Assembly: GCA_918797485.1 (NCBI GenBank)
Contig: CAKKNE010000006.1
Span: forward strand, 2,480,001 to 2,544,000
DNA: 64,000 nucleotides
Reading direction: 5' to 3'
Source: Pelagomonas calceolata
Lineage: Eukaryota > Sar > Pelagophyceae > Pelagomonadales > Pelagomonadaceae
Below are positions 5,077 through 59,605 of this stretch, in pieces. Position 1 is the first letter of the stretch. The number at the start of each line of letters is the position of its first letter. The translations under genes were made by a program, and so were the position numbers. Under the pieces are notes generated by a model. It did no database searches. It was given only the letters and a program-made list of their open reading frames with translations, and was not told the DNA's origin.

Positions 5077-5098
5077 TAGCGTCGTTGTAACACACTAG
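5077..5098 (-). promoter_or_regulatory. Intergenic GCTAG motif, copy 1
   Basis: On the minus strand it reads CTAGTGTGTTAC, then AACGACGCTA. It lies between the divergent oxygenase (ATG 189 bp away) and RPN10 (ATG 209 bp away). It is one of twelve copies described in the findings, and diverges from the consensus in the right arm. Confidence 0.6.
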
Positions 5099-5306
5099 TA
5101 TTTCAGCCGCGGCCTCGTAAAACGCGCACCGCTCCTCTATACGGACTGCGCGCACGCCTGTAGAGCGTCTGCGACCGCGCGATCACTGCGCCGGGCAACT
5201 CTGCAGACGCGCCGCAAGCGCCGCGCGCCTTTGGACCCCAAAGGCTTCCACTGACCAAAACGCCGCCGCGGCGCGAGCGACGAGCCGCCGCGCGCGCACG
5301 GCCACC

Positions 5307-6530
5307 ATGCCCCTCGAAAGCACGATAATATGCCTCGACACGAGTGAATTCATGAGGAACGGCGACTTCACGCCGACGCGGCACGAGAGCCAGCAGGACG
5401 CCGCCAATCTCGTAGTAGGAGCGAAGATGCAGCAGAACCCCGAATCATCAGTAGGTGTCCTGACCATGGCGTCGACCGGTCGAGGCGCTGGAGCAAGAGT
5501 GCTTGTGAGCCCTACGGACGACATGGGCAACATTCTGAATTCGCTGCACAACGCGTCCGTCGGCGGCCAGTTGAACTTCGTCGAAGGTGTCCAGGTGGCG
5601 CAGTTGGCTCTCAAACATAGAAGAAACAAGAACGGCGCGCAGAGGATTGTGCTCTTTGTTGGGAGTCCGGTAGAAGCGGAACAAAAAGCACTGGTGAAAG
5701 TGGGAAAACTCCTCAAGAAGAACAATATTGCGGTCGATGTCGTGGTGCTGGGCGACCGGGACGGCAACGCGGACAAGCTACGGGCCTTTGTGGACGCCGC
5801 AAATGCTAATGATAACTCGAATTTAGTTGCGATTCCCGCGGGCGTGGTCCCGTCGGACGTGCTTATATCTTCTCCGGTGATCCAGGGCAAGGACTCCGGC
5901 GGTGGGGGAGGTGGTGGCGAGGCTTCTACGGGCGGCGGCGGCGGCGGCGGTGGCGGCTTCGCGGAGTTTGGGGGCATCGATCCGAACCTCGACCCGGAGC
6001 TGGCGATGGCGTTGCGCATCTCCATGGAGGAGGAGCGCGCGCGCCAGGAAGCAGCCGCGTCCGCGGAGGGGGGCGCCGCGCCGGCGGACGGGGCCGCCGC
6101 CGAGGCCTCGCCGGCCGCTTCAACGGAGGAAGCGCCCGCCGCCTCGACGCCGAAGACGCCCGAGGCGCCGCAGGACGACGACGCCATGGACGAAGATGAT
6201 GCTCTATTACAGGAAGCTCTCGCGATGTCGATGAAGGAGGACACGGAGGGCGCGACCGTCGAGCCCCAGGCTGATCAGATGGAGGACGACGAGGAGGACG
6301 AGGAGATGAAGCTCGCCCTGGCCATGTCCATGCAGCAGGCGTCGTCCGAGGCGCCGGCGCCCGCCGCGGCTGCTGGCGAGTTCAACGACCCCGCGTTCGT
6401 CAACTCCATGCTCGCGCAGCTGCCGGGCGTCGACCCGAACGATCCTGCTATTCAAGCAGCTTTAGCATCGATCAACCAGGGTGGGGAGAAGAAGGACGAC
6501 GACGCGCCGGCGCCGGCGCCGGCGCCCTAG
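5307..6530 (+). CDS. RPN10: 26S proteasome ubiquitin receptor RPN10/PSMD4
   Basis: 407 residues from ATG 5307, which sits in a GCCACCATG context. The N-terminus is the conserved vWA domain (LESTIICLDTSEFMRNGDF, GGQLNFVEGVQVAQLALKHR, QRIVLFVGSP), which docks between the proteasome base and lid. Three ubiquitin-interacting motifs follow: DPELAMALRISMEEE, ALLQEALAMSMKE and EEMKLALAMSMQQ. Gly- and Ala/Pro-rich linkers separate them. Plant and animal RPN10 also carry two or three UIMs, whereas yeast has one, so this is the full-length type. The protein captures polyubiquitinated substrates. It is divergent from the oxygenase gene across the motif at 5077. Identification is secure. Confidence 0.97.
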   Translation: MPLESTIICLDTSEFMRNGDFTPTRHESQQDAANLVVGAKMQQNPESSVGVLTMASTGRGAGARVLVSPTDDMGNILNSLHNASVGGQLNFVEGVQVAQLALKHRRNKNGAQRIVLFVGSPVEAEQKALVKVGKLLKKNNIAVDVVVLGDRDGNADKLRAFVDAANANDNSNLVAIPAGVVPSDVLISSPVIQGKDSGGGGGGGEASTGGGGGGGGGFAEFGGIDPNLDPELAMALRISMEEERARQEAAASAEGGAAPADGAAAEASPAASTEEAPAASTPKTPEAPQDDDAMDEDDALLQEALAMSMKEDTEGATVEPQADQMEDDEEDEEMKLALAMSMQQASSEAPAPAAAAGEFNDPAFVNSMLAQLPGVDPNDPAIQAALASINQGGEKKDDDAPAPAPAP

Positions 6531-6700
6531 CCTATCTATCATAACGTTACGTAGTACACAGCGAGTTAAAGAGATATCGGGTCGGACGACGATAGGCGTG
6601 GTGGTGGCGTGGACTGGGGCCAGCGCGACCACTCAGCTCACGCGACAGACCCTCGCACACAGACCTCGAACGGACGATGATGGGCGCGTAGTACAAGGAC

Positions 6701-7516
6701 CTAGCTCACGCAACACAAGCCCGGGGGCCCCTCGCCCGCGTCCGCCCGTCTTCGAGCCTCGCGCCGCCGCATCGCGTCCTGGCGGATGCGCCGCGCGTGC
6801 TTCCCCGAGGGCTGCGGTCTTCCTAAACGCGAAAACCGCCGACATCGATCCAACACGTCCTCGACCAAGGCAGAAGCGGCGCCTCCAGTGGACACGTTGT
6901 CCAATAAACAGTGCCCTCCCCGCAACGAGTCCGCGGCGACCCGCGCGTCGCCGTCCAAACCCTCCAAGAATTCTTGGAGCGACGCCTCCTCCAGCAAGTC
7001 GGCGTGCGTCCACACTAAGCATGCACTATTCCGCCAGGCCCGTCCGAGGGCGAACCCAACAGCTACCATAGCTTCCAAATCGGCCGTGTTCAAGCGAGAC
7101 GCGCAGGACGCCACATACAGTACGGAGAAGCGCGCCTCCTTTCCCGTAGTTGTGACGGCTTCTTCGGCCTCCTGCGTCGCTTTTCTAATAGCCGCGGCCG
7201 TGGCGTTCGTCCCCAAACCAGCATCGCCGAAGCCCGGCGTGTCCAGGACCACTAAAGCGTCGCCGCAGGCCACGCCGCAGCTCTTCGTGACGGGGCCCGC
7301 GGATCTTTGAGCCCGGCGCTTTTCTACATTACCAGACAAGCGGTTCGCGGTCGCCGATTTACCGGCGCCGCAGAGGCCGACGAGCACTATAACTAGGACT
7401 TCATCCTTTGCTTTGGAAGCGCACTGCATGATCTCTTGCGCGTCGCTGGCGTCGAGGAGGGACGGCTCGTCATTGGTGATGGACAAGTTGTTGAGTTGCG
7501 CCTCAAGCTCGGCCAT
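6701..7516 (-). CDS. AIG1/GIMAP-like GTPase with C-terminal CaaX box
   Basis: 271 residues from ATG 7516. The P-loop is GLCGAGKSATANRL (GxxxxGKS), the G3 motif is LDTPGFGDAG and G4 is WTHAD, giving the order of the AIG1/TRAFAC-septin-like GTPases. A Lys/Arg-rich tail (ARRIRQDAMRRREARRRADAG) ends in CCVS, a CaaX prenylation box whose final Ser would predict farnesylation. The protein is therefore probably anchored to a cytosolic membrane face. AIG1 proteins are GTP-dependent scaffolds on organelle membranes; the role here is unknown. The in-frame extension to 7699 overlaps the promoter module and is rejected. Its upstream region is homologous to that of the zinc-ribbon gene at 57204. Confidence 0.85.
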   Translation of the reverse strand: MAELEAQLNNLSITNDEPSLLDASDAQEIMQCASKAKDEVLVIVLVGLCGAGKSATANRLSGNVEKRRAQRSAGPVTKSCGVACGDALVVLDTPGFGDAGLGTNATAAAIRKATQEAEEAVTTTGKEARFSVLYVASCASRLNTADLEAMVAVGFALGRAWRNSACLVWTHADLLEEASLQEFLEGLDGDARVAADSLRGGHCLLDNVSTGGAASALVEDVLDRCRRFSRLGRPQPSGKHARRIRQDAMRRREARRRADAGEGPPGLCCVS

Positions 7517-7556
7517 TTTGCAGCTGTGGGTGCTGCTTGTTGGGCCAGCGGCGTTA

Positions 7557-7702
7557 CGCCTCGAGCGTGAGTGATCTAGCCTTCGCAGCAGTCGATAGCG
7601 ATCGATGGTGCAGTGCGGCGCCCGTTTTAACACGCCAGCGGGCCAATGCGTGCAACTCAAAAAGCTGCGTAAACTCGCAGCTAGCGGATCGTAACACACT
7701 AG
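7557..7702 (-). promoter_or_regulatory. Extended promoter module A with GCTAG motif copy 2 (7680-7702)
   Basis: The region upstream of the AIG1-like GTPase shares ordered blocks with 57282-57406. On the plus strand they are CCTCGAGCG, 11 nt, GCCTTCGCAG, then CGATCGAT, CAGTGCG, GTTTTA, CGCCAGCGGGCCA, GCGTGC, CAAAAA, CGCAGCTAGCG and ACACACTAG. The GCTAG motif lies 164 bp upstream of ATG 7516; the other neighbour is the 3' end of the giant gene. Confidence 0.65.
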
Positions 7703-7734
7703 GAAGTAGAACCGACAAAAGACTCACACAACTA

Positions 7735-10700
7735 CTACTTATGCCCCTCGTGCCGGTGGTGCTCCTCCTCCGCAAGATGGTGAAGCCCCTCGCGCAACCG
7801 CGACACGCCGCCCATGCTGTGGAGCCCGTGCTCGCGCGCCCATTCCACGTCCGCGCCGTCCGCGACGGCACCTAACGCCTCAAGGGCGTTGTCCTCGTCC
7901 CTCCGAACGACGTGGCTCTGGTGTTTCGTGGTCTTCATCCGCACTTCCACATCTGCTCTCCTTGTCTTATATCCCCTAATAGAAAACCACCGGTCCTGCT
8001 GTTGGGGACTGAGGAAGTGGCCCATCCGCACCGAATGCGTCTGCGTGCGCACGGTCCCGCGGTACTTAATAACTAAATTTTGAAAACAGTAGATCAGTGT
8101 GAGTGACACTTTCTCCGCCAAGGTACAAGAGGTATCAGGATCCATGTACCGATGAACTCTCTCCACATCCGCGTCACTCTCGTCCGTACTATGGTCGCAG
8201 CGCTGCGTCAGGGCCTCGTAGAACTCCGTGAGCTGCGTACAGCCCAGCTCCCGCATGTCTTTTGCCGACGGGACTTGTACGCTTCGATCGACTAACCTAA
8301 CAAAGGCCTCCAAAAAAGTGACCCACGACAACGCTCTGAATTTGGGAGCGCCCTCATCAATGAATTTCATCCTACTAAAGACGAAGGCATGGGTGGCTTC
8401 TGAACGAGATAGATTCCTAGCATACAGGCCCGAGTGCTCGACGAACAAAAACCACTCCTTGAGGCCGAATAAAGTTCTTCCAGCGATGGGGTGCATCCCT
8501 GAGTATAGTTCAAATAGCCCTCTCAGGATGGATTTGTGTCGCAACAACGCCGTATCCACTTCCTCGCAGTACAACTTCCGCCGCCGAAACTCGTCCGCGT
8601 CGACGACCACGTCGTGCGGCAGATGTAGTAAATGATCTCTCAAAACGTGATGTAAGGCATCGCTCAAAATTTCCACCGCATGTTCCGGGTGTTCCCTAGC
8701 GTGTTGCTCCACATTACCCTTGGCCACGGCGATCCGTAATAAAGCTTCCACCAGCTCGTGGCGCATCATGGCCGTGTCGTCGTTCGCCGCGTTGAGCTTG
8801 CTGTCCTTGTTGCCGACTTCGACGTTGACCTGGACGAAGATGCGCTGGGCGAGTTCTGAGGTAATCTTGGTGCCTTCAGCCTCATGCCGGTGGTGCTCCT
8901 CCTCCGCGAGGTGGTGGAGCCCCTCGCGTATCATGGTAACGCCGCCCAGGCTGTGGGGCTGCTCCTGGGGCGCCGGCGCCGGTCCCCTCATCGAGGCACC
9001 ACGCCGGAGGCTTCGTTTATCCTCGAGTAATGAAGCATCTCTGAGTAAAGAAAAAAAGGCGTTTTGCGACATGTCGAAGGGATCCGCATTCGAACTTCGA
9101 TAGCCGTAGTACTCCATGCACTGCGACAGGAGGCGATACATGGGCAGCATCTCGTGTCTTATAGCTTCGACGATCGCCTCGGTGCCGGAACCGTCCGGTA
9201 ATTGCCCAGCGAGTCGATTGATGAATTTCGGCCAGCGCGGTTGCTCCTCCAAAATCCTCAGGTCTTGCGCGAGCATCCGCGCGTGAACCTTCTCAGGGTT
9301 GTAGAAGCCGTGCGAATCGGCCTCCTTGATTCTGGGGGCGTATATAGATTCAGCTAGCTTCCAAACAGGTCTAGGTGTCTCCACATGAACGACGGGCGGC
9401 GGTGGGGGTACGTACTCCACTAACAGATGCAGCGTGTACCGCGGCAGCATGCCCAGTGGCGTCCTCGAGTGGCCTAACAACTCCATGCTTCGTAGGTGTG
9501 GCATGTGGTGCCTGTGGCATCTTGGACAATCAACTACGTCTCTCTCCGACAAAGGGTCGATGTCCTCAAGTGTATCAAGTGCAGGCGTCTTCAGATCCGA
9601 CAACGCGTCGTCGTCCGACCATAATTGAGGTTCTGTAGGCCTCAACCATGCGCCAGGATCCAACACCTCACACGGCACACGACTAGCGTGATGTAAGTGG
9701 TACCGCTGGTCGGGCCCGCCGTCGGGGTCGGCAAAGGCGTAAGAAGAAAACATGTCTCCTACCACTGATCCTGGGACATGTTTAAATGCACACAAATGAG
9801 TATCACGCATAGCGCGCTGGTCCCAGTTCATATTGCCACCTCTGGCCTCGTTAAACGTAAAACAGTGAGGTTTTCCACCAGGTGCGACAACACAAATTTT
9901 GTCGAGCTGTTGCGCGACCATCGACGAGGCTTGCGAGTAGTCGTCGGGCCATTTCTCCGCTTCCGCATTCACTATGAGGGGCGTCCAGGGGTCGTGCCCT
10001 TTCTCGGTCGGGACACTTCCTTTCCTTCCAGCAGGACCTATCCGATGCGAGCCGGCTCTCGGTCTTGTGGCGTCTAACGCCGCGCATTTCTGCCTTCGTT
10101 TAGATGGTGCACTCTTGGGTCGAGGTGGTATGGGTTCGCGCACGGCCCGCACCGCGAAATACGGATCTTTTTCTCCCTCGACTTGAGGAGTCCAGAGTGT
10201 GGACGCGTGGCGGCCCCATTCGGTGCAAGCCTTGCCGGGGTGTTTCCGGTAGGTCGCCGACTGGGGCCGCGACGGCTGCGGCGGGCCGTACGGTCGCATC
10301 AACCGAGGCACGTACTCGTCATTTTTGAATGTTTCCAGGAACCAGGTTTCATACCTCTTCGTCAAGTTTTGTTTGATGCGCGGCAGATTCTCGGGCGTGT
10401 TTTCTGGTTCGTCGGAGCCTAGGCGTCTTGGAACTACGGGCGCAAATCCCGCGTCCAATCGCTGACAGTAGGCTAGGAACCGGGCGCGCGCGTCCCTTTG
10501 TAAGTTTGAGAGAGTAGAGACGGCGAGTTCCCTCGTAACGACATCCACGTCACTTTCATCGGGTGCCGTGGCCACGTCAACGAGAGCGGCGAGGCCGTGC
10601 TCCGCCAACACAGTCGTCGCGTCCTTGCCTCCTGTCGACAGGTTCAACAGGCAGTGCAACGCTTCTTTCCGGAATGATGCGGAGCGCTCCATCATGACTA

Positions 10701-14933: not shown

Positions 14934-14951
14934 TGTATAATGTGAATAGTA

Positions 14952-20360: not shown

Positions 20361-21965
20361 CTACGTCGACCGCCAGCGAGGCCGCTTCGCCGCACCAGGC
20401 TTCGGCGCGAAGAAGCTCTGGACGTCTGCCGCATTAGCTGGTCGCAGAGCCTCCGGCGCGGTCTTCCGCCGCGTCGTTTTTTTCTTGGCCGCGGGCTTCG
20501 CGTCACTACTCGACGACGACCGCGGCCTAGCGCCGCTCGCTCGCGACGACGACCGGGCCCGCGGCTTTGGCGCGGGCGCGTCCGTCGAAGGAGGCGGCGG
20601 CGACCGCGCCGCGCCGCGCCGCGTCGCGCGCCAGAGCATGAGCTGCCTTTCAACTTCCGCTCTCACGTCCGGCGGCAGCTCGTTGAGCGTTTCCAAATCG
20701 ACCTCCGCGCCGTCGATGCCGGCGTCGACTGGGGCCGGTGCGGGCGGCTCGGGCGCGGGCGGCGGCGCGGCCGGGGCGGCTGGCGGCTCGCGAGCCGGGG
20801 GAGGTGCGGCCGGGGCGGCGCGCGCAAAAGCCGCAGCGACGCTATGCCGCGCCGGCGGGAACGCCGCCGCGACGCGCTCGCGCTCGCAGGCCTCAAAATT
20901 TAATGAAGGACCGACCTCCGCGTCGATATCAGCTCCTGGAGGCGGCACCGACACTCGAGACGGACACACGAGCTCTGATAGGGCGACGCAGCGCGGCACG
21001 ACGCCAGCACCGGGCAGGCCCTTCCAGACCTTAGCATGATAAAAAGCGCGCTCCGCGGCCCTCGCGCCTTCGACGTTCGTCAGTCGTTTGACGGCCTTCT
21101 CGATCCTTTCATTATCGGGCAAGCGCCTAGCCGCACAGACGTGCTCCGCCGCGCCCACTAAACCCAAACCCGCCTCCGACGCATAATAATCACAGCCCGC
21201 CAGGACGCACGCCTGCACGAAGCACCTTGCAGCAACCCGCGCGTCGACCCGCAACGCCTTCGCGAGGGCCTTGGCGAACTTGGAACGCCTCAGATCAGTT
21301 ATCAATTTCGTCAGGTCGCCTGGTATTAATAAATCACCAGTCCCGTCTCTATCGAGCTTCGTGACGAGGAGACACCTACTAAGACGCAGGCCACATAATA
21401 AACAAGCCAAGTCCGAATCCTCAGTTATGATACCATCAGCCAAACCAAGGACACAGAGCGCCGCGAGCTGCGCGTCGGCCTCGTAGGGCGCGACGAGGCA
21501 CCTCACACTGACTTTCTCGAGCTCGCGCTTGGTGACTTCGACCATGACTGGCGTAATTCTAACAGTCTTGCCGTAGGCCTTGCGCATCTCTCCAATAGCA
21601 TCGTCGCGGTCTTCGCCGGCGGCGTGCCTCCGTTCGCATTCTAGCTTCCACTGACGCGCGTCCGCGAGGGCCTGGTCTCGCACCGCGCGCCGGTCATTAT
21701 TAGTTTGCCTCTTGAGCGGCGTTGGCGCACCGTCGAAGACGACGATCGACGTCACACCCTTGGCCGCGAGCATCTGCACGCGTTGTACCGCAAAATGCGC
21801 GTAGCGCGTCGTCGGCTCGCCCTCGGCGAGGGCCTCGGCGCACGAGAGCGCGCCGCGGTGCAGGAGCGCGTGGCCGTCCAGTGCCAGCGTCCGGCCGCGC
21901 AGTTCGGAGACGTTTATTTTCTTTTGTCCGGCTTTAAGCTGGTGGTGGAGGCCCGAGATGCCCAT
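20361..21965 (-). CDS. EXO1: Exonuclease 1-type XPG/RAD2-family nuclease
   Basis: 534 residues from ATG 21965. The start MGISGLHHQLKAG and the XPG-N motifs (LALDGHALLHRGA, SIVVFDGAPTPLKRQTN) match EXO1 more closely than FEN1, and the XPG-I motifs follow (CLVAPYEADAQLAALCVLG, IITEDSDLACL, then ACVLAGCDYYAS). The metal-binding acidic residues of the family (VFDG, YEADAQ, TEDSD, GCDY) are all present. A Pro/Ala-rich linker leads to a basic tail ending VQSFFAPKPGAAKRPRW, resembling a PCNA-binding SFF box. EXO1 resects 5' ends in mismatch and double-strand-break repair. The gene lies inside the segment flanked by half genes. Confidence 0.92.
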   Translation of the reverse strand: MGISGLHHQLKAGQKKINVSELRGRTLALDGHALLHRGALSCAEALAEGEPTTRYAHFAVQRVQMLAAKGVTSIVVFDGAPTPLKRQTNNDRRAVRDQALADARQWKLECERRHAAGEDRDDAIGEMRKAYGKTVRITPVMVEVTKRELEKVSVRCLVAPYEADAQLAALCVLGLADGIITEDSDLACLLCGLRLSRCLLVTKLDRDGTGDLLIPGDLTKLITDLRRSKFAKALAKALRVDARVAARCFVQACVLAGCDYYASEAGLGLVGAAEHVCAARRLPDNERIEKAVKRLTNVEGARAAERAFYHAKVWKGLPGAGVVPRCVALSELVCPSRVSVPPPGADIDAEVGPSLNFEACERERVAAAFPPARHSVAAAFARAAPAAPPPAREPPAAPAAPPPAPEPPAPAPVDAGIDGAEVDLETLNELPPDVRAEVERQLMLWRATRRGAARSPPPPSTDAPAPKPRARSSSRASGARPRSSSSSDAKPAAKKKTTRRKTAPEALRPANAADVQSFFAPKPGAAKRPRWRST

Positions 21966-25542: not shown

Positions 25543-27375
25543 CTATACAAATTCCCCCCCGCGCTCCACCATCTCCAAGTTTCGTTTCCGAATGGTAGTT
25601 GTCGGGGACTCGGGCGGCTCGTCCTCCTTGTAGTCGTCATCATCAAGAAGGTTTTCTTGCAACGAGGACTGCCGCCGGACGTCCGACGAGCTCACGCGCG
25701 CGTAGGCGCCGCCCGGGTCGCCGCCCGGCTTGTGCAGCATCCGCCGCGCGCAGGCGAGCGCCGCGGCCCCGCAGAAGACGAGCATGACCGCGACAGCCAA
25801 AGGTGCGTCGAGGCTGATCGGCGGCCGCGCGTGGACGAAGATCAAGAGGGATGCTGGCGCGAGGCACAGGCAGTCCATGCGGACCTTTGGCGCGAGCATC
25901 TCCGCGACGGCCGCGAGCACCGCGACCGCGACCACGGCGTAGACGCAGAACGCGAAGTCGTCCGCAGCAGTAGTAGGCGCCCGCGGTGGCAACGCTGACC
26001 GTATGGCGGCGTGCTGCGTCACCGCGGCCAGCATCAGCGTCACGTGGTAGACCAGCCGCAGGCCCGCGTTGCCTGTGTGGAAATCAATCAGTGAACGCCA
26101 TCGAGCAGACGCAGGAATTGATTTCCACACCGGGCGTTGCTCTGCGCGTAGGAAACGATCGCAAATAAAGCGATGAACGACGGCGGCAGGAGTACGAATG
26201 CGCCTAACCTCGAAGGTGGCGCGAACTTCAGTTCTAAGGACAAACGACTGGTCTGCCTGGTCGGCGGGCAGCCGGATGAAGGATAAGACAATTGCGCCTC
26301 GCAATTTCTCGCGAAGGGCGGCCGCCGAGCCGCTTCGTCGACCACAACTTTGGCGGACAGAGTCGCATCTTTTTCGTCCACAGACGCGAAAGAACTGAGT
26401 TTGGTCGCGAAGCCGCTGTACGTCTCGAGCAGACAGAGGACTTTGGACGGCGCGCCTGCCGATAGCTCCGGTGGTAGTTCCAGCGTAATGGGCAAAGTTT
26501 GGGTTTGAAACGGATACTCGGCGATGGACGGAGAAAAGTAAAATTCCGACTGCACCCGGAGGTGGTCAAATCTATCATCCTGGACTATGGGATTTTTTGA
26601 AGGGTTTTTACCGATGTTCACAAACTGGAGCTCGGGTAAATCTTCGTTCTTGAAGAAGAGCCACTTGTCTGTTGCATCGACGTCGCACGCTCGGCCGCGG
26701 TCGGTCGGTCGCGTCGCTTCCTTGAGGGCGCTGTCGAGCTCGAGGAAGGGCCGGTAGTACTTGAGGACGTAGACGTCGACATCTCCATACCACGTCGACG
26801 ACTGCAGGTCTATTGAGGCGACATCGGAGACAAATATACCTAGGCCGTAGACCTCGACTTGGTCTACGGTGGTGGTCGTGTTCGCCGTGGTCGCCTGTGT
26901 GGAAATCAAATTTTACGGCGCGTTCGACGCGACACCTGCTCGATGGCGTGGTGCACCCGACTCACTGCTTGATTTACGCACAGGTGGTCGCCTCGTCGTC
27001 GACCTCCGGCTCCGTCACCGTCTGCACGGTCCAGCGCACGGGTTCCGATAGTGCAGTACCGTTTACGGCACAAAACACGCCTTGCGCCAGGGCGATGTCG
27101 TACCGCGCGTCGAACTGCTTGAGCTCATTTGGTAACTTCACTACACCCCTCTTCGCATCGGCCTCTGGCGCGCCGTCGCTGCAACTACGGTCCTTGCCGT
27201 TCTGGTAGACGCAGATAGCAGCTGACGGCTGGTCCTCACAAGCGCTGACGGCTTCGTCGAAGTCGACAAAAACAGAATCGGTGCCCACTTCCACGAGGTC
27301 GTGGTTGCGGCCGGGGCCGTAGTCGAGGACTTGTAATGCGCTCGCGGTTGCGAGTGCTATGGCGAGGCGTCGCAT
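25543..27375 (-). CDS. Pentameric ligand-gated ion channel (Cys-loop-like) with two introners
   Basis: Exons 27375-26992, 26894-26141 and 26072-25543 give 555 residues. A signal peptide (MRRLAIALATASALQVLD) precedes a large extracellular beta domain with the pLGIC signatures YPFQTQTLPITLELP and SFYFSP-like strands. Four membrane segments follow: GAFVLLPPSFIALFAIVSY, LRLVYHVTLMLAAVTQHAAI, FCVYAVVAVAVLAAVAEML and PLAVAVMLVFCGAAALACA. The tail is acidic and cytosolic (DDDDYKEDEP). No disulfide-closed loop is obvious, as in bacterial ELIC/GLIC homologues. Both introns have GC donors supplied by target duplications and end CCACACAG. Exon joins restore the pre-insertion frame (DEATTA, QSNAGLR). The ligand and ion are unknown. 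Confidence 0.75.
26065..26140 (-). mobile_element. Introner element, copy 2 (intron 26073-26140)
   Basis: Element 26073-26132 (60 bp) has nearly perfect terminal inverted repeats (CTGTGTGGAAATCAA and its complement). The 8-bp flanks CGCGTTGC and GGCGTTGC match at 7 of 8 positions. On the minus strand the intron starts with the GC of the duplication and ends CCACACAG. The core CTGCTCGATGGCGT is shared with the copy at 26895, in opposite orientation relative to the gene. Confidence 0.85.
26887..26991 (+). mobile_element. Introner element, copy 1 (intron 26895-26991)
   Basis: Element 26895-26983 (89 bp) starts CTGTGTGGAAATCAA and ends TTGATTTACGCACAG, a 15-bp inverted repeat with two mismatches. 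Perfect 8-bp target duplications GTGGTCGC lie at 26887-26894 and 26984-26991. For the minus-strand channel gene the intron takes its GC donor from one duplication and its AG acceptor from the element end. The core CTGCTCGATGGCGT and CACCCGACTCACTG are shared with the other copies. Confidence 0.9.
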
Positions 27376-41576: not shown

Positions 41577-42884
41577 TTACGCCACCGCTACCCCGACCCC
41601 CGCCGCCGCGTCGTCGCACGGCGGGTCCGGCGCGCCCGGCGGCGCCTTAAATGGATCTAACGTAGCGCAGCCCGCGAGCTCGTCCACGAGCAAGGAACAC
41701 TGCTCGTAGCCGACCCTCATCAAAAAGGACGAGTTCCGTCCATAGCTCTTCATGCCCAATATATAAAACCGCGGCTCGGGGTTGCGCAGCGTGGCAGCGC
41801 CGGGCGCCGCCTGCTTGAGGCAGTCGCCGCCGCCGCCGCCCGCCGCCGCCGCGAGGAGCGTCGCCGCGAGCTTCATCGGGCCGTCACTCGCGTAACACTG
41901 GTGCACGTGCAGCTCGCGATACAGGTCCGCATTCGGCCGATAACCCGTCAAGGAGACGAGGTGGTCCACTTCTACAATTGTGGAGTCCGTGAGCGTCAGC
42001 TTGAGGGCGTTCCGCACGACGTCGATTCTCTGAATGCGGGCGCCTCGCACACATTCTAATGAGCCGCTCGTGCCTAAACTCGCCAGGCCGTTGCCGTAGG
42101 CCGCTAACGCGTCTCTTTGAGGCAAGGGGTCGCCCTCGACGCGCTGGTAGGGCGCTTCGCTCTTGGCCTTGCGCACGAGCCAGACGGTCTCCACGTTTTC
42201 GTCCGCGAGCTTCCTTATTGTGGTAATGGCCGAGAAGCCGCCACCTAACACAGCGACGCGCTTGCCCTTGAAGGAACCAGGAGATGGAATGACGCGCGAC
42301 ACCAAACCAAGAGCCTCCGCCTTCGCCTCGCCCGGCGCACTCAACCCACCAGAACCGGATCTTTGCGCCGTTTCGGGTGCGTATGTGCCGCTGCAGTCGA
42401 CGACCGCCATCGCCTCCTCCCAGGCCTCGTCGTCATTCCGTCGCAGGAGCGCGCGGAAGGGAAGCGTCTCCCTACGTGAATCTCCGACGGCACCGATGCC
42501 CTCCTTCTTCAGGAGGTGGCCTCGAGCTAACCCGACCACACTACAATGTTCTTGAATCGTACAGCGGCCCGTCGCTTCCAAATACGAGGCGAGAGGTAAT
42601 AAAACGTCCCTGCGAAACTCGTGGCCCGTCAAAAAAGCGTCTTCAGAGGGCACGCAGCGCGGCGGCGCGCCCTCCAGACCCGTCTCCAGCGCTTTTCTAC
42701 AATCGTCGGGCAGGTTCAAGGCCATCGCGGAGAAGAGCGTCACGTGGCCCCACTGCTCGACGTTCGCGCCGATAGAGCCCTTCTCCCAGATCACGACTCT
42801 ATGACCAGCTTTTACAAGGCGGAAGGCGGCATACAAGCCGATGGGGCCGGCGCCGATCACGGCTACTCTGTCGGTTGCGGCCAT
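41577..42884 (-). CDS. FAD/NAD(P)-binding flavoprotein monooxygenase-like enzyme
   Basis: 435 residues from ATG 42884. The N-terminal FAD-binding Rossmann motif is complete (VAVIGAGPIGLYAAFRLVKA with GxGxxG), followed by VVIWEKGSIG. A second dinucleotide fold is at KRVAVLGGGFSAITTIRKLA. VSLTGYRPNADLYREL contains the TGY/ATG-like motif that precedes the flavin in FMO and thioredoxin-reductase-type enzymes. The tail RFYILGMKSYGRNSSFLMRV is conserved in this class. It probably oxidises a small molecule with NADPH and oxygen; the substrate is unknown. A 57-residue upstream extension lacks an ATG. The promoter side carries motif copy 8, 183 bp upstream. Confidence 0.85.
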   Translation of the reverse strand: MAATDRVAVIGAGPIGLYAAFRLVKAGHRVVIWEKGSIGANVEQWGHVTLFSAMALNLPDDCRKALETGLEGAPPRCVPSEDAFLTGHEFRRDVLLPLASYLEATGRCTIQEHCSVVGLARGHLLKKEGIGAVGDSRRETLPFRALLRRNDDEAWEEAMAVVDCSGTYAPETAQRSGSGGLSAPGEAKAEALGLVSRVIPSPGSFKGKRVAVLGGGFSAITTIRKLADENVETVWLVRKAKSEAPYQRVEGDPLPQRDALAAYGNGLASLGTSGSLECVRGARIQRIDVVRNALKLTLTDSTIVEVDHLVSLTGYRPNADLYRELHVHQCYASDGPMKLAATLLAAAAGGGGGDCLKQAAPGAATLRNPEPRFYILGMKSYGRNSSFLMRVGYEQCSLLVDELAGCATLDPFKAPPGAPDPPCDDAAAGVGVAVA

Positions 42885-50504: not shown

Positions 50505-52715
50505 ATGGAGGCCCTCACCCTCGCCTGCGCCGGCGCCGAGGCCTTGGTCGGCGTCGCCGGCATCATCGTCGACCAGAACAAGTCGTTCCACTACGACGCG
50601 TCGCTCGAGGACGCTCTCGCAGCGTTAGCGTTCTGCGCATTAGTGACGCTTGTACTAAGACAACAAGAGCGCCACGGCTTGGCCGCCTTCGCCTCCGTGG
50701 TAGGTTTGCTCTACGGCGGTGCCAAGGGCCTTGTCATCGGCCTCTCGCACCACTCGGTGAACACGGCATCTATTGTACTGTGCGCCGTATGCGGTGTCCT
50801 CGCGGTCGGGTCCATCGCGGGCTCCCTGCGGGAACGCCGCATCCTGCGAGATAATGATGATTACCAGCTGCTCGAGGACGGCGCCAAGCCCGCGCGCCTG
50901 TCAGCCTACGCGATATTACGCTTACTGAAACCTTACTTCTGGCCCCGGAGTTTAGTTGGAAGATTAGCTGTGTTCTCCACTCTACTCTTCGTCATACTGA
51001 GCAAGGTCTGCACGGTAGTGGCGCCACTAGTATTAGCGAGTGCTGCGGACGCCGTCGCCGCGAGGGACAAGAATGGAGTACATAAAGCAATAAAAATGTC
51101 GCTGTTCTACGCTCTATTAACGTTCACGGGCAAGGTGATGAAGGAATGTCAATCCCTAGCTTACCTAAATGTGCAAAAATACGCCTTCATCGACCTGTCC
51201 TCAGATACCTTCGCGCACCTCCATTCGTTATCTCTACAGTGGGCTTTGTCCAAGAAGATGGGCGAGGTCGTGAGAATTACCGACAGAGGAATAGCTGGCT
51301 GTGACACGTTTATGAAGTATGGGGTCCTGTACATAGGACCGTCGATCGGGGAGGCGGTCGCGGTCTGTATCCTCTTCTACGTCCATTTCAAGCTCTGGAG
51401 TCTCTCGTTATTAGTCTTTGGTGCTGTGGGTGCGTACGCCATCTTAACCGTAAAGATGACCTTGTGGCGGAAGCGCTTCCGCTCCGCCATGAACAAGTCG
51501 GACAACGCGTGGCACGACCGCCTGACGGATTCGCTGGTCAACTTCGAAACCGTAAAATATTTTACTGCTGAGGCGTACGAGAACGAACAATTTTCCCGAG
51601 AGATCGCCAAGTACCAGAAGAGCTCCGTCTCAGTACAAGCATCTCTATCCGCATTGAACATCAGCCAGCAGGTTATTTTATGTGGTTGTTTAGGAGGGGC
51701 CATGGCTCTTTCTGCCTTAGCGGTTCACAAAGGCGAAGCCAGTGTAGGAGGCTTCGTGGCCGTCAACGTCTGGGTCATCAACTTGTTTGCGCCTTTAAAT
51801 TTCCTCGGGACGGTCTACAACGCTCTCATCACGGCTACTGTAGACTTAAGGAATTTATCAGAGCTACTTGCACAAAAGCCGCTCGTCAAAGACGGTCCCG
51901 CGGAGCACCCGGCGCTCGCTTCCAAAAGCCCTATTGGGGTGGCTTTTGCGGATGTCAAGTTCCGGTATCCCGGCGTCACGGCAGTAGACGCCGGTTTGAA
52001 GCAGGTGTCCTTCGAGGTTAAAGCGGGGACGTCATTAGGCATCGTCGGCCCCACCGGTGCGGGCAAGTCGACGATAGCCCGGTTACTGTTTCGCTTCTTC
52101 GATGTGGAAGGGGGTTCCGTGAGCGTGGGCGGTCTCGATGTTCGTAGTGTCACACAAGCGTCTTTGCGACGGCTCATGGGCGTCGTGCCGCAGGACACGG
52201 TCCTGTTCAACTCTTCCTTAGATTACAATATAAGGTACGGCAAGCGGAACTGCTCTACGGAAGAACGCGACGACGCCGCGAAACATGCATCTCTCAGTGC
52301 TTTCGTTAGTCGCTTAGAGGAGGGCTGGGACACGGTTGTGGGCGAGCGCGGGCTGAAACTGAGTGGGGGCGAGAAGCAGCGCGTGGCCATCGCGCGGTTG
52401 TTCGTCAAGAATCCTCCGATAGTGCTGCTCGACGAAGCGACCTCGGCTTTGGACTCGCGGACCGAGGCGGACATCCAGGGCGCTTTAGCGGCGCTGTCGT
52501 CCGATCGCACGTCCGTGACCATCGCGCATCGATTGGGCACGATCTCGAATTGCGATGCGATCATCGTGTTGAATGCCGGAAGGATCACGGAGCGCGGGTC
52601 GCACGCGGAATTGCTGGCGCTCGAGGGCGAGTACAAGGCCATGTGGGACGCGCAAGCTAGGAATTCGGAGGCCGAGGAGGTCAAGGAGGAGCCTTCCGAG
52701 GCCGAGCCCCAGTGA
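50505..52715 (+). CDS. ABC half transporter, ABCB6/HMT1/ATM1-like
   Basis: 736 residues from ATG 50505. About four extra N-terminal membrane helices precede a six-helix ABC core; MGEVVRITDRGIAGCDTF and DSLVNFETVKYFTAEAYE (the NFETVKYF signature of the ATM1/ABCB6/HMT1 group) lie in it. The nucleotide-binding domain is complete: Walker A VGPTGAGKST, Q-loop VVPQDTVLFN, signature LKLSGGEKQRVAIARLF, Walker B IVLLDEATSALDS, and the H-loop TIAHRLG. The family moves glutathione conjugates, heme precursors or phytochelatin-bound metals across vacuolar or mitochondrial membranes. The N-terminal extension favours the ABCB6/HMT1 type; orthology is not proven. The tail is Glu-rich. Confidence 0.93.
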   Translation: MEALTLACAGAEALVGVAGIIVDQNKSFHYDASLEDALAALAFCALVTLVLRQQERHGLAAFASVVGLLYGGAKGLVIGLSHHSVNTASIVLCAVCGVLAVGSIAGSLRERRILRDNDDYQLLEDGAKPARLSAYAILRLLKPYFWPRSLVGRLAVFSTLLFVILSKVCTVVAPLVLASAADAVAARDKNGVHKAIKMSLFYALLTFTGKVMKECQSLAYLNVQKYAFIDLSSDTFAHLHSLSLQWALSKKMGEVVRITDRGIAGCDTFMKYGVLYIGPSIGEAVAVCILFYVHFKLWSLSLLVFGAVGAYAILTVKMTLWRKRFRSAMNKSDNAWHDRLTDSLVNFETVKYFTAEAYENEQFSREIAKYQKSSVSVQASLSALNISQQVILCGCLGGAMALSALAVHKGEASVGGFVAVNVWVINLFAPLNFLGTVYNALITATVDLRNLSELLAQKPLVKDGPAEHPALASKSPIGVAFADVKFRYPGVTAVDAGLKQVSFEVKAGTSLGIVGPTGAGKSTIARLLFRFFDVEGGSVSVGGLDVRSVTQASLRRLMGVVPQDTVLFNSSLDYNIRYGKRNCSTEERDDAAKHASLSAFVSRLEEGWDTVVGERGLKLSGGEKQRVAIARLFVKNPPIVLLDEATSALDSRTEADIQGALAALSSDRTSVTIAHRLGTISNCDAIIVLNAGRITERGSHAELLALEGEYKAMWDAQARNSEAEEVKEEPSEAEPQ

Positions 52716-52736
52716 GTAAGAGGTCTTTTGTTATTT

Positions 52737-52759: not shown

Positions 52760-52989
52760 CCTGGCACGCGCCGCGTTTTTGCTCGAATTTCGTCCGCAGA
52801 ACCAATTCACGGCCCGATAGTGGCACGCGGCCTTCGAGTGCGCAACACGGCGACCACGGATCGCGGGGTCAAAGAGCTATCTCTTGCTAGGATTGGTGTC
52901 TGGTTGGCAATTTAGCTGGCGTGTGGCCTAATACATATCTCTTGTCCGTCTCGCCTCTAAAGTCGACTCCCAGGAGGCGCACGGTACCG

Positions 52990-53571: not shown

Positions 53572-53627
53572 GGCCGACTACGCCGATTGACATTCACGCT
53601 CAGTTCGTAATTCACACTTGATTCTTA

Positions 53628-55632: not shown

Positions 55633-55866
55633 GATTATTGCTGTAGGCGAGTGGTTTCGAGTCGCTTTGCGCGGTGGTTGGCCGCTCTTGGATGATGAGT
55701 CGCGTCGGCTGGACGGCGTGCGAGAGCGTGTCCTCTGTGGCGAGTTAGCGCTCAATAAAGCCGGAAAGCTGGAAATTTGGGAGATGAGCTGGAGATATGG
55801 AGATGGCTGCTGGGCTTACCGACGCGCGTACGCCGTCGACGCGAACGATCAAACAAACAACACTAA

Positions 55867-57204
55867 TTACCCCTCCGTCCGCCACTCGTGCCCGCACGCC
55901 CGGCACGACACCGCCCACATGGAGTCCGGCGCGTCCTTCGACCCCCAGGTCTCCGTCTTGTGGGTCTGGAGGTTGCCGCCCCCTAAGGGTTCGCGGTCCG
56001 TGCGGCACGACCCGCAGGCGACGCACGGCCAGCCGTCGGCGCGGTCCTCGTCGCGCGTCACGACGATCTCTTCGCCGGCGCGCGCGTAGAGCTGCGTCGG
56101 CCGCGTGGGCTTGCGCCGCGACGCCTCCGCCTCGGACCCGAGCAGCGCCCCGAAGGGGTCGTCGTCGTCGGGCGCCTGCTGGCGCTCGGCCAGCCGCTTC
56201 GCCGCTTCCACTCCAACCGCCTCGGCGGCGCGCGCGAAGGCCCGCTGCCAGGCGCCCTCGACGCGCGGCGCCGCCGCGTCGATGCGGTCCCGCGCAACGA
56301 CGCGGCTCCGGCCTCTCCGGAACGCCGCGCCGGCGAACCAGTGGTAGAGGCAGGCGGCGCCGCCGCGGTCCGTCTCGAGGCAGGCCGGCGCGCCGCACGC
56401 GTCGCAGGTCTGGCGCGGGTCCGGCGGCGCGAGTTGTCGTGGTGGTGGCGCCGCCCCCGGCGGCGCCCGCGCCGGCGCGGGTCGTCGTGGTGGGGGCGCT
56501 GGGCGCCGCGGCGGCGGCGGCGCGGGCGGGCGCGGCGGTGCCGACGCCGGCGCTTCTGCGGCTGCGGCGGCTAACCGCTCCCGCGCGCTCTTCTTCTTCG
56601 GTCGCTTCGGCGCGGGCCGGAGCGCCGCCGCGAGCGGGTCGCGCGGCCGCGTCGAGCGCACTCCAACAATCGTCGCGCCGCGGCCCGGCGCGGGGGCCCG
56701 CTTCGAGGCGAGGTGGCGGCGGTCCGATGGCGGTGGCTCCACGGTCGTCGCGGCGTAGCCGAAGACGTTGCGGTGGCGCGCTGGCTGCTGGTCCACTTGC
56801 GGTGGCGCTGGTGGCGCTGGCGGCTGTGCCGGCGCTGGCGGCGCTGGTGCTGGCGCCGGCGGTGGCGGTGGCGCTGCAGCTGGCGTATCAGCAGCGTCGT
56901 CGTCCCGGGTCAGGTCCACCACTTGTTGTGGCGCTGGCGCTGGCGGCTGCGCTGGCGCTGGTGCTGGCGCTGGCGCTGGCACTACGTCGTCAGACCCCGG
57001 CAATTCCGGCTCGGCCGGCGCAGGGGCGGGCGCGCGCCGCCGCCGTCGCCGCGGCGGTGCGGCCGGAGCCGGCGCAGAGGGCTCCTCCTCGGCAGCGCGG
57101 CGCGTGGCGCTCCGCGTCCGCCGTCTACCGGCGCGTGCGGTCGCCGGCGCGTCGTTGCTGCCGGCCGTGTTGTGATCAGCTATTTCGCGCAGGGCACGCT
57201 TCAT
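55867..57204 (-). CDS. Pro-rich protein with TFIIS-type zinc ribbon
   Basis: 445 residues from ATG 57204 (MKRALREIADHNTAGSN). About 250 residues of Ala/Pro/Arg low complexity precede an ordered half with two zinc sites. The first is CDACGAPACLETDRGGAACL followed by a helix (WQRAFARAAEAVGVEAAKRL). The second is CVACGSCRTDRE, LQTHKTETWGSKDAPDSMWA, CRACGHEWRTE, a C-x2-C...C-x2-C ribbon as in TFIIS, which inserts into RNA polymerase to stimulate cleavage. The acidic DE hairpin of TFIIS appears as KDAPD, so cleavage activity is uncertain. Its promoter is homologous to that of the AIG1-like GTPase. Confidence 0.7.
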   Translation of the reverse strand: MKRALREIADHNTAGSNDAPATARAGRRRTRSATRRAAEEEPSAPAPAAPPRRRRRRAPAPAPAEPELPGSDDVVPAPAPAPAPAQPPAPAPQQVVDLTRDDDAADTPAAAPPPPPAPAPAPPAPAQPPAPPAPPQVDQQPARHRNVFGYAATTVEPPPSDRRHLASKRAPAPGRGATIVGVRSTRPRDPLAAALRPAPKRPKKKSARERLAAAAAEAPASAPPRPPAPPPPRRPAPPPRRPAPARAPPGAAPPPRQLAPPDPRQTCDACGAPACLETDRGGAACLYHWFAGAAFRRGRSRVVARDRIDAAAPRVEGAWQRAFARAAEAVGVEAAKRLAERQQAPDDDDPFGALLGSEAEASRRKPTRPTQLYARAGEEIVVTRDEDRADGWPCVACGSCRTDREPLGGGNLQTHKTETWGSKDAPDSMWAVSCRACGHEWRTEG

Positions 57205-57281
57205 TGTCGACCGCTGGCGTGAGTACGAGCTTGTACAAGAGAGAGAGCCCACAGCACAGAGCTGCGTCAGCGGGCTTATTC

Positions 57282-57406
57282 CTCGAGCGGCGTGCACCAG
57301 GCCTTCGCAGCGATCGATAACGCTTCCTGGCAGTGCGTTTTACGCGCCAGCGGGCCAGGCGTGCGCGGTGCCAAAAAACGCAGCTAGCGTCCATTGACAC
57401 ACTAGC
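57282..57406 (-). promoter_or_regulatory. Extended promoter module B with GCTAG motif copy 11 (57383-57406)
   Basis: Block order as in module A (7557-7702): CCTCGAGCG, 11 nt, GCCTTCGCAG, CGATCGAT, GCAGTGCG, GTTTTA, CGCCAGCGGGCCA, GCGTGC, CAAAAA, CGCAGCTAGCG and ACACACTAG. It lies between divergent genes: the zinc-ribbon ATG is 179 bp from the motif and the TPR gene ATG 186 bp from it. Confidence 0.7.
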
Positions 57407-57591
57407 GCGCAGAGGTCCTTGCGAAAAATATCGCATTGGCAGCCCAGAGACACGGCATTGCTGTTTGTGGAAGCTTCTGCAACCAAATTAATCGCTCCTC
57501 GGCGAGTCCTGCGCGTTTGCAGCACCAGATTTGCCGGAGAGCACGCTTAAAACACAAAGGCTGCGCCAGACGCCATCGACGCGATCACAAG

Positions 57592-59551
57592 ATGGTCAAC
57601 TACTCCAAGTGGGACGCCATCGGCGATTCGTCAGACGACGAAGCACCATCAAGACTAGCGCAGGACGTCCAGACCAAATTAGCGGTCGCGCCTCCGGAAG
57701 CCCCGCCGCGGAACCCGAAAGCGGAAGTGCTCACCGATAGAGCCAACCAGGTCGTCAATTCCTTGATCGAGAAGCACGGCGAGGACAAAAGTCGACTCCT
57801 AGGCCCCGACGAGCGCGCCGCCTACCGCGAAGCCTGTACCTTGTATGATGGCGCCCTCAAAAACATGGAGGTCAAGGACGACAAGCTTTCCAGTCGTATT
57901 TTACTAAATATGGCCACGTGCCACTGGCAGGTCAACGAGTTCGGGCCGGCTAGGAAGGCTGCTTCCAGAGCATTGGACTTTGCCGTCGCAGAAGACAAGA
58001 GCAGAGCTCAAGACATCGTGGATGCCTGCGATCGAGAGCTTCGTAGAGTCGCGTCCACAAAAGACGGCGTCGACCACGCGGCCGCGGGCGACGCGGCTCT
58101 GCACGCGAAGGATTTTGCCGCTGGAGCCAAACATTTCTCCGCACTTTGTAAGGCCTTCAAGGGTAGCGGCGGCGAGGACGAGATCCACGCGTTGGCGCAT
58201 TTGGCTCTTTGTTATGAACAGCAGTCGAAATTCGGCGAGGCGGCTTCGCATTATGATAAAGCCGCCGAGGTCTGCGACAAGACGGATCAGGCCTCCGCAT
58301 CCACACCTCGACGGGCGCAGCTCGCGCAACGGGCCCAAATGTGCTACGAGAAGAATGGCGAGGATTCGAAGAGCGCCGCGTCGTGTGCGCGCGAGACGCG
58401 GCGGTGCGCTGATGACGCTGAATTGGCGCTGAAGTGCGCGGGGGCCTTCGCGCAGCGCTACCGTGAGCGGCAGTGTGGAATTTGGCTCGCTCCGACGGCG
58501 TCTAAGATCTCGCGTCCACGCAGGCAAGGAAAAGAAGAGCAAAGCCCTCGTGCTGCCCGCCTTAACGGTCGCCGTCGAGACCGCGACGAAAGCGAGGAAA
58601 CGGGACCCGAAGTGCCTGAAGACCGCTTCCCAAAGATTACTGTTGGCCACCGTCCTGGACGCGCTCGCGGACGGTCTATCGACACAGAAACAGTTCAAGG
58701 ACGCCCTACCAAAGGCCGAACGCGCCCTCAAGGAGTACGACGCCGTCGCCAAGGCCCATTTGCGGGCGAAGAACGAAGACGAGAACTTCCGCGCGCGGCG
58801 CGCGGCGGCGGGCTGCGCTCTAGCGGTGGCGTCCTGCCGCGCGGCGCTGCACAAGTACGACGACGCGGGGGACCAGTTCCGCGACGCCTCGAACCGCTAC
58901 GCGGGCGTGTCCGAGTTCCTGCGGGCGGGCCAGGCGGCCCTCAGCGCGGCGCGGTGCTTCACGAACGCCGGGTGCTCGCCGGAAGGCACGCAGGGGACCA
59001 TCGACGCCGAAGGTGGCCCGGGCGCCGCCGCGAACGTCGAGGACTACCAGCAGGCCGCGAAACTACTCGCGATTGCGTTAGATCTACCAAAAAACTCCGC
59101 AGACGACAAGGCCGCCATACAATCTTTACTAGCGAAGTCTCTGGTCGGCGCCGGGCGACCCAACGACGCCGTCGGCCCCGCAAAAAGTGCATTAGCTTAT
59201 CTCGATGCGAAACCTCGATCGGCGAATGACTCAAAGGACCGGGCCTCGGCCTGCGAGACGCTCGCCGACGCGCTGGCCGGCGCGGATCGACTCAGGGACG
59301 CGGCCTCGTGCCTCGAAAAGGCCGCGGTGTACTGCTTCGAGGACGATACACATCTGGGCACGGCGGGGGCCCAGCACCTCTTCAACGCCGCCGGCGCGCT
59401 CCAAAAGTGCGGCGACGGCGACGAGAGCGCGGCGATGTTCCGGAAAGCTAGAGACGCGTACAAGCGGCTCGGCCACCCGAAGGCCGCGCAGACGGCGCAG
59501 GAGCACGCGGAAGCGGCGTTGCGGGCGTGCGCCGAGGCCGTGCTGGACTGA
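57592..59551 (+). CDS. TPR/SNAP-like repeat protein; one intron
   Basis: Exons 57592-58462 and 58524-59551 give 632 residues. The intron (61 nt, GTGAGC donor, CCACGCAG acceptor) joins in phase (YRKEKKSK). After an acidic N-terminus (YSKWDAIGDSSDDEAPSRL), TPR-like helix pairs run through the protein: ILLNMATCHWQVNEFGPARK, DEIHALAHLALCYEQQSKFG, EAASHYDKAAEVCD, then VASCRAALHKYDDAGDQFRD and SEFLRAGQAALSAARCFTNA. The 'AASHYDKAAEV' type unit and total size resemble alpha/gamma-SNAP helices doubled, but a TPR scaffold is as likely. No SNARE disassembly function can be claimed. It shares promoter module B with the zinc-ribbon gene. Confidence 0.8.
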
Positions 59552-59583
59552 GGGTTCTTTTTTTGAGACGGGTAAGTTTACTC

Positions 59584-59605
59584 GCTAGTGTCTTTATGCC
59601 GCTAG
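59584..59605 (+). promoter_or_regulatory. Intergenic GCTAG motif, copy 12
   Basis: Reads GCTAGTGTCTTTAT, GCCGCTAG, 103 bp before ATG 59708 of the rhomboid gene and 32 bp after the stop of the TPR gene. A T-tract (TTCTTTTTTTGAGACGGG) precedes it. Confidence 0.75.

What the first reader, a model, noticed from the sequence alone, without database searches (positions are those of the whole stretch)
5077..59605. A 22-26 bp partly palindromic motif shared by twelve gene promoters
Seen directly: GCTAGTGTCTTAC, 2-4 nt, CCGCTAGC (ends form an inverted GCTAG/CTAGC repeat; flank often TTTGCTAG) occurs at 5077, 7680, 13744, 18230, 22116, 24613, 39136, 43067, 50281, 52737, 57383 and 59584, with a decayed copy at 62709. 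Eight copies lie between divergent genes, four between tandem genes, none between convergent genes or inside coding sequence. Each has a start codon 103-231 bp away. A match at about 16 fixed positions is not expected even once by chance in 64 kb. Inference: a shared, probably bidirectional promoter or boundary element read by one DNA-binding protein. I know of no described element with this sequence.
Basis: partly seen in the sequence, partly recalled or inferred. Interest (0 to 1): 0.88.

Follow-up and report, generated by a model that had tools for sequence, protein, structure and literature searches.

The report
Genome-wide promoter element in Pelagomonas
A 22-26 base, partly mirror-symmetric DNA word sits upstream of many genes in a tiny ocean alga (very probably Pelagomonas calceolata) and is kept in relatives, so it is probably the landing site of an unknown protein that opens promoters, often for two genes at once.

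Summary
The window lies in a 32.4-Mb, 8-contig genome matching Pelagomonas calceolata RCC100. The exact pattern occurs 1262 times there against 0 for the reversed control; with 3 mismatches and one spacing, 2360 against 3. In 324 kb sampled, 50 copies: 0 in predicted coding sequence, 0 of 60 convergent gaps, 22 of 52 divergent and 20 of 91 same-strand gaps; 5 lie at stretch ends. Median distance to the nearest predicted ATG is 168 bp; orientation is near neutral. The core is an inverted repeat of CTAGYG half-sites, mostly 8-10 bp apart, plus an asymmetric TCTTAC block; a rarer palindromic class shares the half-sites. Three metagenome contigs carrying relatives' DNA keep it beside the same sequence as in RCC100, one next to a gene with 47% of fourfold sites changed. 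Best explanation: the site of one dimeric, lineage-specific general regulatory factor that opens promoters both ways. The protein, nucleosome depletion and transcription starts are inferred. The searches named found no published description.

The parts
5075..5099 (-). element copy, variant left arm (GTGTGTTAC), gap 4; divergent
   Evidence: 19.0 bits
7680..7703 (-). element copy, gap 3; tandem, upstream of the AIG1-like GTPase gene 6701-7516(-)
   Evidence: 38.6 bits
13744..13769 (+). element copy with two extra bases (GTGTGTCTTAC); divergent, DnaJ gene on the right
   Evidence: 16.5 bits
18230..18251 (-). element copy, gap 1, perfect arms; divergent
   Evidence: 42.0 bits
22115..22138 (+). 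element copy, gap 3; upstream of the XPG-family gene 20361-21965(-); strand of the right-hand gene ambiguous
   Evidence: 39.7 bits
24613..24634 (-). element copy, gap 1; divergent
   Evidence: 37.8 bits
39136..39159 (-). element copy, gap 3; divergent, PUB/AAA gene on the right
   Evidence: 42.9 bits
43067..43090 (+). element copy, gap 3, the one literal match; upstream of the oxidoreductase gene 41577-42884(-)
   Evidence: 43.3 bits
50281..50304 (+). element copy, gap 3; divergent, ABC transporter gene 50505-52715(+) on the right
   Evidence: 42.0 bits
52736..52759 (+). element copy, gap 3; tandem
   Evidence: 40.4 bits
57383..57406 (-). element copy, intermediate type (GTGTGTCAATGGACGCTAGC); strand of the left-hand gene ambiguous, TPR gene 57592(+) on the right
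   Evidence: 22.2 bits
59584..59606 (+). element copy, gap 2; tandem
   Evidence: 26.4 bits

Best explanation
The element is the binding site of one lineage-specific, dimeric DNA-binding protein that works as a general regulatory (promoter-opening) factor in Pelagomonas. Two CTAGYG half-sites face each other, mostly 8-10 bp apart, so a dimer would sit across the dyad; the extra TCTTAC block on one side gives most sites a polarity and more contacts. Bound about 170 bp before the start codon, the protein would keep a nucleosome-free gap open and let polymerase start on one side or both, so one site can serve a divergent pair. Shown: sequence architecture, copy number, position relative to predicted genes, near-neutral orientation, mixed gene functions, presence beside the same sequence in other lineages. 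Inferred: the protein, that it is a dimer, nucleosome depletion, transcription initiation.
For: Copy number far above the reversed control. 50 sampled copies: 0 in 234,771 bp of predicted coding sequence; 45 lie in classified gaps, 0 of them in 60 convergent gaps (7.4 expected by length, p about 3e-4), the rest in 22 of 52 divergent and 20 of 91 same-strand gaps; 5 lie at stretch ends. Nearest-ATG distance median 168 bp, quartiles 138-198, 55 of 58 copies. Orientation 16:7 in tandem (p 0.09) and 14:15 relative to the nearer divergent gene. 40 of 50 strong copies match strict inverted CTAGYG half-sites, 38 of them with 8-10 bp between; among weaker pairs 7 inverted, 0 everted, 1 direct. A palindromic class shares the half-sites: 159 forward and 161 reverse matches, 0 control. 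Genes served span unrelated functions. In relatives: core 24/24, 24/24 and 22/24 in three pairs read on both sides, the last beside a gene with 47% of fourfold sites changed; in three more, the RCC100 alignment includes the element.
Against: No transcription-start, chromatin or binding data. Gene starts come from my own gene finder plus ORFs, not an annotation. Sampled copies carry about 36 bits (23.9 + 11.8; chosen by score, so an upper estimate), against about 14 bits needed to single out 5,000 sites; so long a site is unusual for one protein and may point to two proteins or to spread by copying. Some copies do share flanking sequence: two window copies (7680 and 57383) share 109 bp at 72% on the right side, and three other copies share a 21-37-bp word 14-20 bp from the right edge. 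Short direct repeats of 2-3 bp at the edges number 9 against 4.7 expected. Genes with and without it do not differ clearly: Pfam hits 25 of 30 versus 20 of 30 (p 0.23), GC3 alike (p 0.62), coding length slightly longer with it (p 0.026). One weaker palindromic pair lies in a 1,505-bp gap called convergent.
Confidence: 0.67

Rival explanations
1. A chromatin boundary or insulator element: it separates neighbouring genes and blocks cross-talk rather than driving transcription.
For: It sits between genes and often between divergent pairs; fly boundary factors such as BEAF-32 also sit at divergent promoters (recalled).
Against: A boundary would be expected between convergent genes too, but 0 of 60 convergent gaps carry a strong copy. 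It tracks the start codon at about 170 bp.
Confidence: 0.12
2. A dispersed mobile or transposon-derived word (for example the remnant of a tiny inverted-repeat element, or part of a larger spreading unit) with no present role.
For: More sequence information than needed, an inverted-repeat core, a genome rich in introner-like and other short dispersed repeats, some shared flanks (109 bp at 72% between two window copies; a 21-37-bp word beside three copies), and slightly more 2-3 bp edge repeats than expected, 9 against 4.7.
Against: Averaged over 49 copies the columns outside the element carry little information. No edge repeat of 4 bp or more in 58 copies. None in predicted coding sequence. 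The two arms are fixed while the centre varies in length. Found beside the same sequence in relatives, in the most diverged pair within a gap that otherwise hardly aligns.
Confidence: 0.1
3. A core promoter element that sets the transcription start itself, like a TATA box or initiator.
For: Narrow distance range to the predicted ATG.
Against: A core element has one direction and a fixed offset; here orientation is 16:7 and 14:15, and one copy often lies between two genes.
Confidence: 0.07
4. A replication-origin element.
For: Gene-free, upstream position; some yeast promoter factors such as Abf1 also act at origins (recalled).
Against: About one per 7 kb (146 per Mb in the 26 placed stretches) is far denser than origins usually are (general knowledge).
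Confidence: 0.02

Closest known systems
Yeast general regulatory factors (Reb1, Abf1, Rap1, Cbf1)
   Same: Sites in many promoters that help set nucleosome-free regions, and the factor in charge differs between lineages (PMC2897762, passages read).
   Different: Sequence unrelated and yeast sites shorter (both recalled); here the protein and the nucleosome depletion are unknown.
Human ZNF143/THAP11 promoter motif
   Same: Promoter motif; THAP11 (Ronin) derives from a DNA transposon and recognises a hyperconserved promoter sequence (PMC5695914, start of abstract in the listing). A ZNF143 preprint reports enrichment of activator motifs in bidirectional promoters in its section on SP1 and ZNF143 sites (PMC11118474, passages read).
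   Different: No sequence likeness to the human motif (recalled); this element has a dyad of CTAGYG half-sites; no homologous protein was searched for.
Drosophila M1BP, DREF and BEAF-32 sites (recalled)
   Same: Promoter-class motifs upstream of broadly used genes, often at divergent pairs.
   Different: Unrelated, shorter sequences.
Introner elements of pelagophytes
   Same: High-copy repeated DNA in the same genome or in Aureococcus (PMC9481584 passages; PMC9860276 passages; own sample).
   Different: Introners make introns inside genes and often carry terminal inverted repeats; no copy of this element lies in predicted coding sequence, and it is 22-26 bp long.

Membership tests
General regulatory factor (GRF) site | Found upstream of many functionally unrelated genes | tested here: met
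   42 of 143 divergent and same-strand gaps; 61 of 146 gene 5' ends under the selection told in the report; mixed Pfam functions
General regulatory factor (GRF) site | Works in either orientation and at divergent promoters | tested here: inconclusive
   Placement fits: 22 of 52 divergent gaps; orientation 16:7 and 14:15; function not tested
General regulatory factor (GRF) site | Lies in a nucleosome-depleted region and causes it | not testable with these tools
   No ATAC or MNase data
General regulatory factor (GRF) site | Bound by a known GRF (Reb1, Abf1, Rap1, Cbf1 type) | not tested
   No protein searched for
ZNF143/THAP11 motif | Same DNA sequence and homologous protein | not tested
   Sequence compared from memory only; protein not searched for
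Transposable element / MITE / introner | Target-site duplications | tested here: not met
   None of 4 bp or more in 58 copies; 2-3 bp repeats 9 against 4.7 expected
Transposable element / MITE / introner | Shared sequence beyond the motif | tested here: inconclusive
   Little information in the flank columns of 49 copies, but some pairs of copies share flanking stretches
Transposable element / MITE / introner | Insertion without regard to gene structure | tested here: not met
   0 of 50 copies in predicted coding sequence, 0 of 60 convergent gaps
Core promoter element | Fixed direction relative to the gene | tested here: not met
   Orientation 16:7 (p 0.09) and 14:15

The most novel reading that the evidence does not exclude
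One lineage-specific protein, possibly a domesticated transposase whose ancestral terminal repeats seeded the site, organises 30-40% of promoters in an abundant ocean eukaryote through a dyad of up to 36 bits, with a polar class of several thousand sites and a palindromic class of a few hundred that read the same half-sites in two ways.
Probability: 0.2. Interest if true: 0.82.

Novelty: new member of a known kind. Interest (0 to 1): 0.63.

Why it matters
I found no study of how promoters are built in pelagophytes: the three Pelagomonas papers whose main text I searched contain neither 'promoter' nor 'motif'. A single, long, easily scanned element at a large share of promoters would give a direct handle on gene regulation in a globally abundant alga, a candidate bidirectional promoter part, and bait for its protein. 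It also bears on an open question: why different lineages adopt different general regulatory factors, and whether some were taken from transposons.

Tried and rejected
Rejected: the decayed copy at 62709. A viral origin: 0 exact matches to two patterns in viral contigs. A direct or everted half-site arrangement. A single regulon or a difference in GC3. An RNA family or tRNA in the window: none reported.

Led nowhere: whole-sequence word searches in papers. The 9-mer search gave 82 papers, 20 listed, none on an alga by title; the 12-mer search gave one paper, on diphthamide and diphtheria toxin (listing only). A paper search for promoter motifs at divergent algal gene pairs found 0 papers. k-mer comparison of gaps with and without the element gave no partner motif that I would defend; introner words dominated it.

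Not done: any search for the binding protein; genome-wide positions of class-2 sites relative to genes; comparison of L044 with RCC100.
Full report
WHAT GENOME. The window is G000:C6:2480001-2544000 of a 32,445,274-bp genome in 8 contigs; six contigs are 3.9-6.3 Mb. This matches the published P. calceolata RCC100 assembly: six nuclear contigs of 32.4 Mb, a 90-kb plastid and a 39-kb mitochondrial contig, 63% GC (PMC9481584, passages read). That paper reports a near-identical duplication at the ends of two contigs; here the first and fifth contigs carry element copies at nearly the same coordinates (145,550/145,625 and 303,666/303,621). Such duplications inflate genome-wide counts slightly. Among the nearest named homologues of one window protein are three pelagophytes. 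The species name is an inference from size and relatives; no tool named the genome.

OBSERVATION. The twelve copies are real. The literal two-arm pattern matches once; over the twelve, mismatches run 0-4 and gaps 1-5. The decayed copy at 62709 is not supported (-7.6 bits). Genome-wide, CTAGTGTCTTAC-N2-4-CCGCTAG occurs 1262 times (610 + 652) against 0 for the pattern read backwards; with N1 90 times against 0; with N3 and up to 3 mismatches 2360 times against 3.

SAMPLE. I took 26 placed 10-kb stretches at round coordinates (L009-L034) plus the window, 324 kb, and built a matrix with a variable gap from 49 copies, 8 of them from stretches fetched because they match (L001-L008). At 16 bits or more there are 50 hits against 0 in the reversed control. 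Density in the 26 placed stretches is 146 per Mb, about 4,700 copies if extrapolated; 7 of the 26 hold none. Consensus: TTGCTAGTGTCTTAC-NNN-CCGCTAGC; columns further out carry little information. Gap 3 is commonest (30 of 50), then 2 (9), 1 (5), 4 (4), 0 and 5 (1 each). Information in these 50 is about 36 bits; they were chosen by score, so this is an upper estimate. About 14 bits would single out 5,000 places.

PLACE RELATIVE TO GENES. Genes were called with a home-made frame-aware Markov model, not an annotation, so errors are expected where ORFs overlap on both strands. Of 50 copies, 0 lie in 234,771 bp of coding sequence; 5 lie at stretch ends and have no class; 45 lie in classified gaps. 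Of 203 gaps between coding segments, 22 of 52 divergent, 20 of 91 same-strand and 0 of 60 convergent gaps hold a copy; by length alone 7.4 copies would fall in convergent gaps (p about 3e-4). 29 of the 91 same-strand gaps contain introner-like words and may be introns. In a second count by gene, 61 of 146 gene 5' ends have a copy within 450 bp. That count left out coding segments under 240 bp, segments with no neighbour in the stretch, upstream gaps under 120 bp, and same-strand gaps that carry introner words and no element; the last rule raises the share. Nearest-ATG distance: median 168 bp, quartiles 138-198, for 55 of 58 copies, the eight match-chosen stretches included; two values are negative, from misplaced starts. 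Element strand equals gene strand in 16 of 23 tandem cases (p 0.09) and 14 of 29 divergent cases relative to the nearer gene.

ARCHITECTURE. Strict inverted CTAGYG...CRCTAG pairs match 40 of the 50 strong copies: spacing N8 (5), N9 (6), N10 (27), N11 and N12 (1 each). Outside strong copies there are 7 more: N8 (5), N6 and N10 (1 each). The reversed-letter control gave 3 over all spacings from 0 to 30. Among weak pairs at 6-40 bp, inverted 7, everted 0, direct 1 (all). The 7 weak pairs are noncoding; six lie in divergent or same-strand gaps and one in a 1,505-bp gap called convergent (L024). Three of the seven fit, or nearly fit, a palindrome CTAGYGTRTCGAYACRCTAG. Genome-wide the pattern CTAGYGTRTCNAYACRCTAG gives 159 forward and 161 reverse matches at up to one mismatch, against 0; palindromes are counted on both strands, so this is between about 160 and 320 places. 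CTAGTGT alone occurs outside strong elements 22 times, 2 of them in coding sequence and 3 in gaps called convergent. So two site classes, one polar and one symmetric, share half-sites. The simplest reader is a dimeric protein (inference).

CONSERVATION. The pattern GCTAGTGTCTTACNNNCCGCTAG hits 3 contigs in the prokaryote genome collection, all in metagenome bins, marine by their labels (recalled). L035 is a relative's contig: its importin-like protein is 98.5% identical to RCC100 while 258 of 546 fourfold sites differ (0.47). In both genomes an element lies past the end of that gene (about 20 bp and 73 bp past the stop), in the same orientation, with 22 of 24 core bases equal, while the rest of that gap hardly aligns. 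The gene on the far side was not seen in either, so 'same place' means beside the same neighbour. L036 and L037 are contigs with bacterial genes (MurB, MgtE, sigma factor; MgsA) next to Pelagomonas-like pieces, probably mis-joined; the core is 24 of 24 in both, in pieces 96% and 89% identical overall, so these two say less. A search of the three bins gave 7 places, three of them the same as above. Of the four new ones (L044-L047) I compared three: the RCC100 alignment covers the element and breaks near it (L045 1487-1658, L046 1501-2590, L047 10-610). The RCC100 letters there could not be read, so for these three the match is from alignment coordinates only. The bins were searched with the pattern, so relatives' copies were chosen for being intact; the test is whether RCC100 has one beside the same sequence.

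MOBILE ELEMENT? Against: no edge repeats of 4 bp or more in 58 copies, no copy in coding sequence, fixed arms with a variable centre. For: 2-3 bp edge repeats are 9 against 4.7 expected, and some flanks are shared. Two window copies (7680 and 57383) share 109 bp at 72%, 18-26 bp from the right edge; three copies (in L011, L014, L027) share a 21-37-bp word 14-20 bp from the right edge; copies in L031 and L032 share 70 bp at 97%, offset by 16 bp relative to the element; other shared words lie at unequal distances (positions matched to copies by sequence and order). I read these as duplicated promoters and other dispersed words, but they leave room for spread by copying. No match in viral contigs to two patterns.

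GENES SERVED. Pfam (E up to 0.001, some hits below the curated cut-off) found a domain in 25 of 30 genes with and 20 of 30 without the element (p 0.23). I picked these 60 by hand from the 146, in list order, skipping some, mostly short ones. Functions are mixed (SNARE, GDI, mannosyltransferase, helicase, kinase, carrier), which speaks for a general factor rather than a regulon.

LITERATURE. Pelagomonas papers PMC9481584, PMC13284251 and PMC12054182: word search of the main text shows no 'motif' and no 'promoter'. Pelagophyte + promoter + motif gives 20 papers (listing); the one with all three words in its abstract, on the Aureococcus virus, describes a viral early motif of different sequence (PMC5917014, passages). 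Word searches for the sequence found nothing relevant among the titles listed, nor did a search on divergent algal gene pairs. Preprints on bioRxiv and most subscription journals are not in the library.

VERDICT. A real, abundant promoter-associated element, kept in relatives; most likely the site of a lineage-specific general regulatory factor. New in sequence as far as the searches show, known in kind. On checking I lowered the best explanation from 0.68 to 0.67 and raised the mobile-element rival from 0.09 to 0.10, because of the shared flanks.

Noticed in passing
window 26000-27000; L019, L028 and others: Introner-like introns with inverted ends CCTGTGTGGAAATCA...TGATTTCCACACAGG and an inner word CCACGCCATCGACGCGA/TCGATGGCGTGG; the published genome reports an intron-length peak near 210 bp like introners.
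   Followed up: partly
window 28682, 30203, 57569, 59714; L022:308; L028:1490: The word ACGCCATCGA, often continued as CGCG, also occurs outside introners, in several cases not far before a start codon; ACGCCATCGACGCG is the commonest 14-mer by number of distinct gaps in the sample (20), ahead of the promoter element (17). Role unknown.
   Followed up: partly
flanks of copies in L014, L024, L031-L034: Other dispersed 20-70-bp words, e.g. TCAGGCTCAGGCTAGTTACGTCGC and GTTACGGTGCTAGGACTAGTGGGCGGAGC, which also contain CTAG.
   Followed up: no
L046:1352-1474: A repeat of about 120-137 bp, with about 40 matches scored out of 180 candidates in RCC100, lies just beside the element in a relative, at a point where RCC100 aligns without it.
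   Followed up: no
L035, L036, L037: Metagenome bins labelled Spirochaeta or proteobacterium contain Pelagomonas-like DNA; two contigs look mis-joined with bacterial genes.
   Followed up: partly
324-kb sample (window and L009-L034): CTAG is about 3.6 times commoner per kb in noncoding than in coding sequence outside the elements (3.58 versus 0.98 per kb).
   Followed up: no
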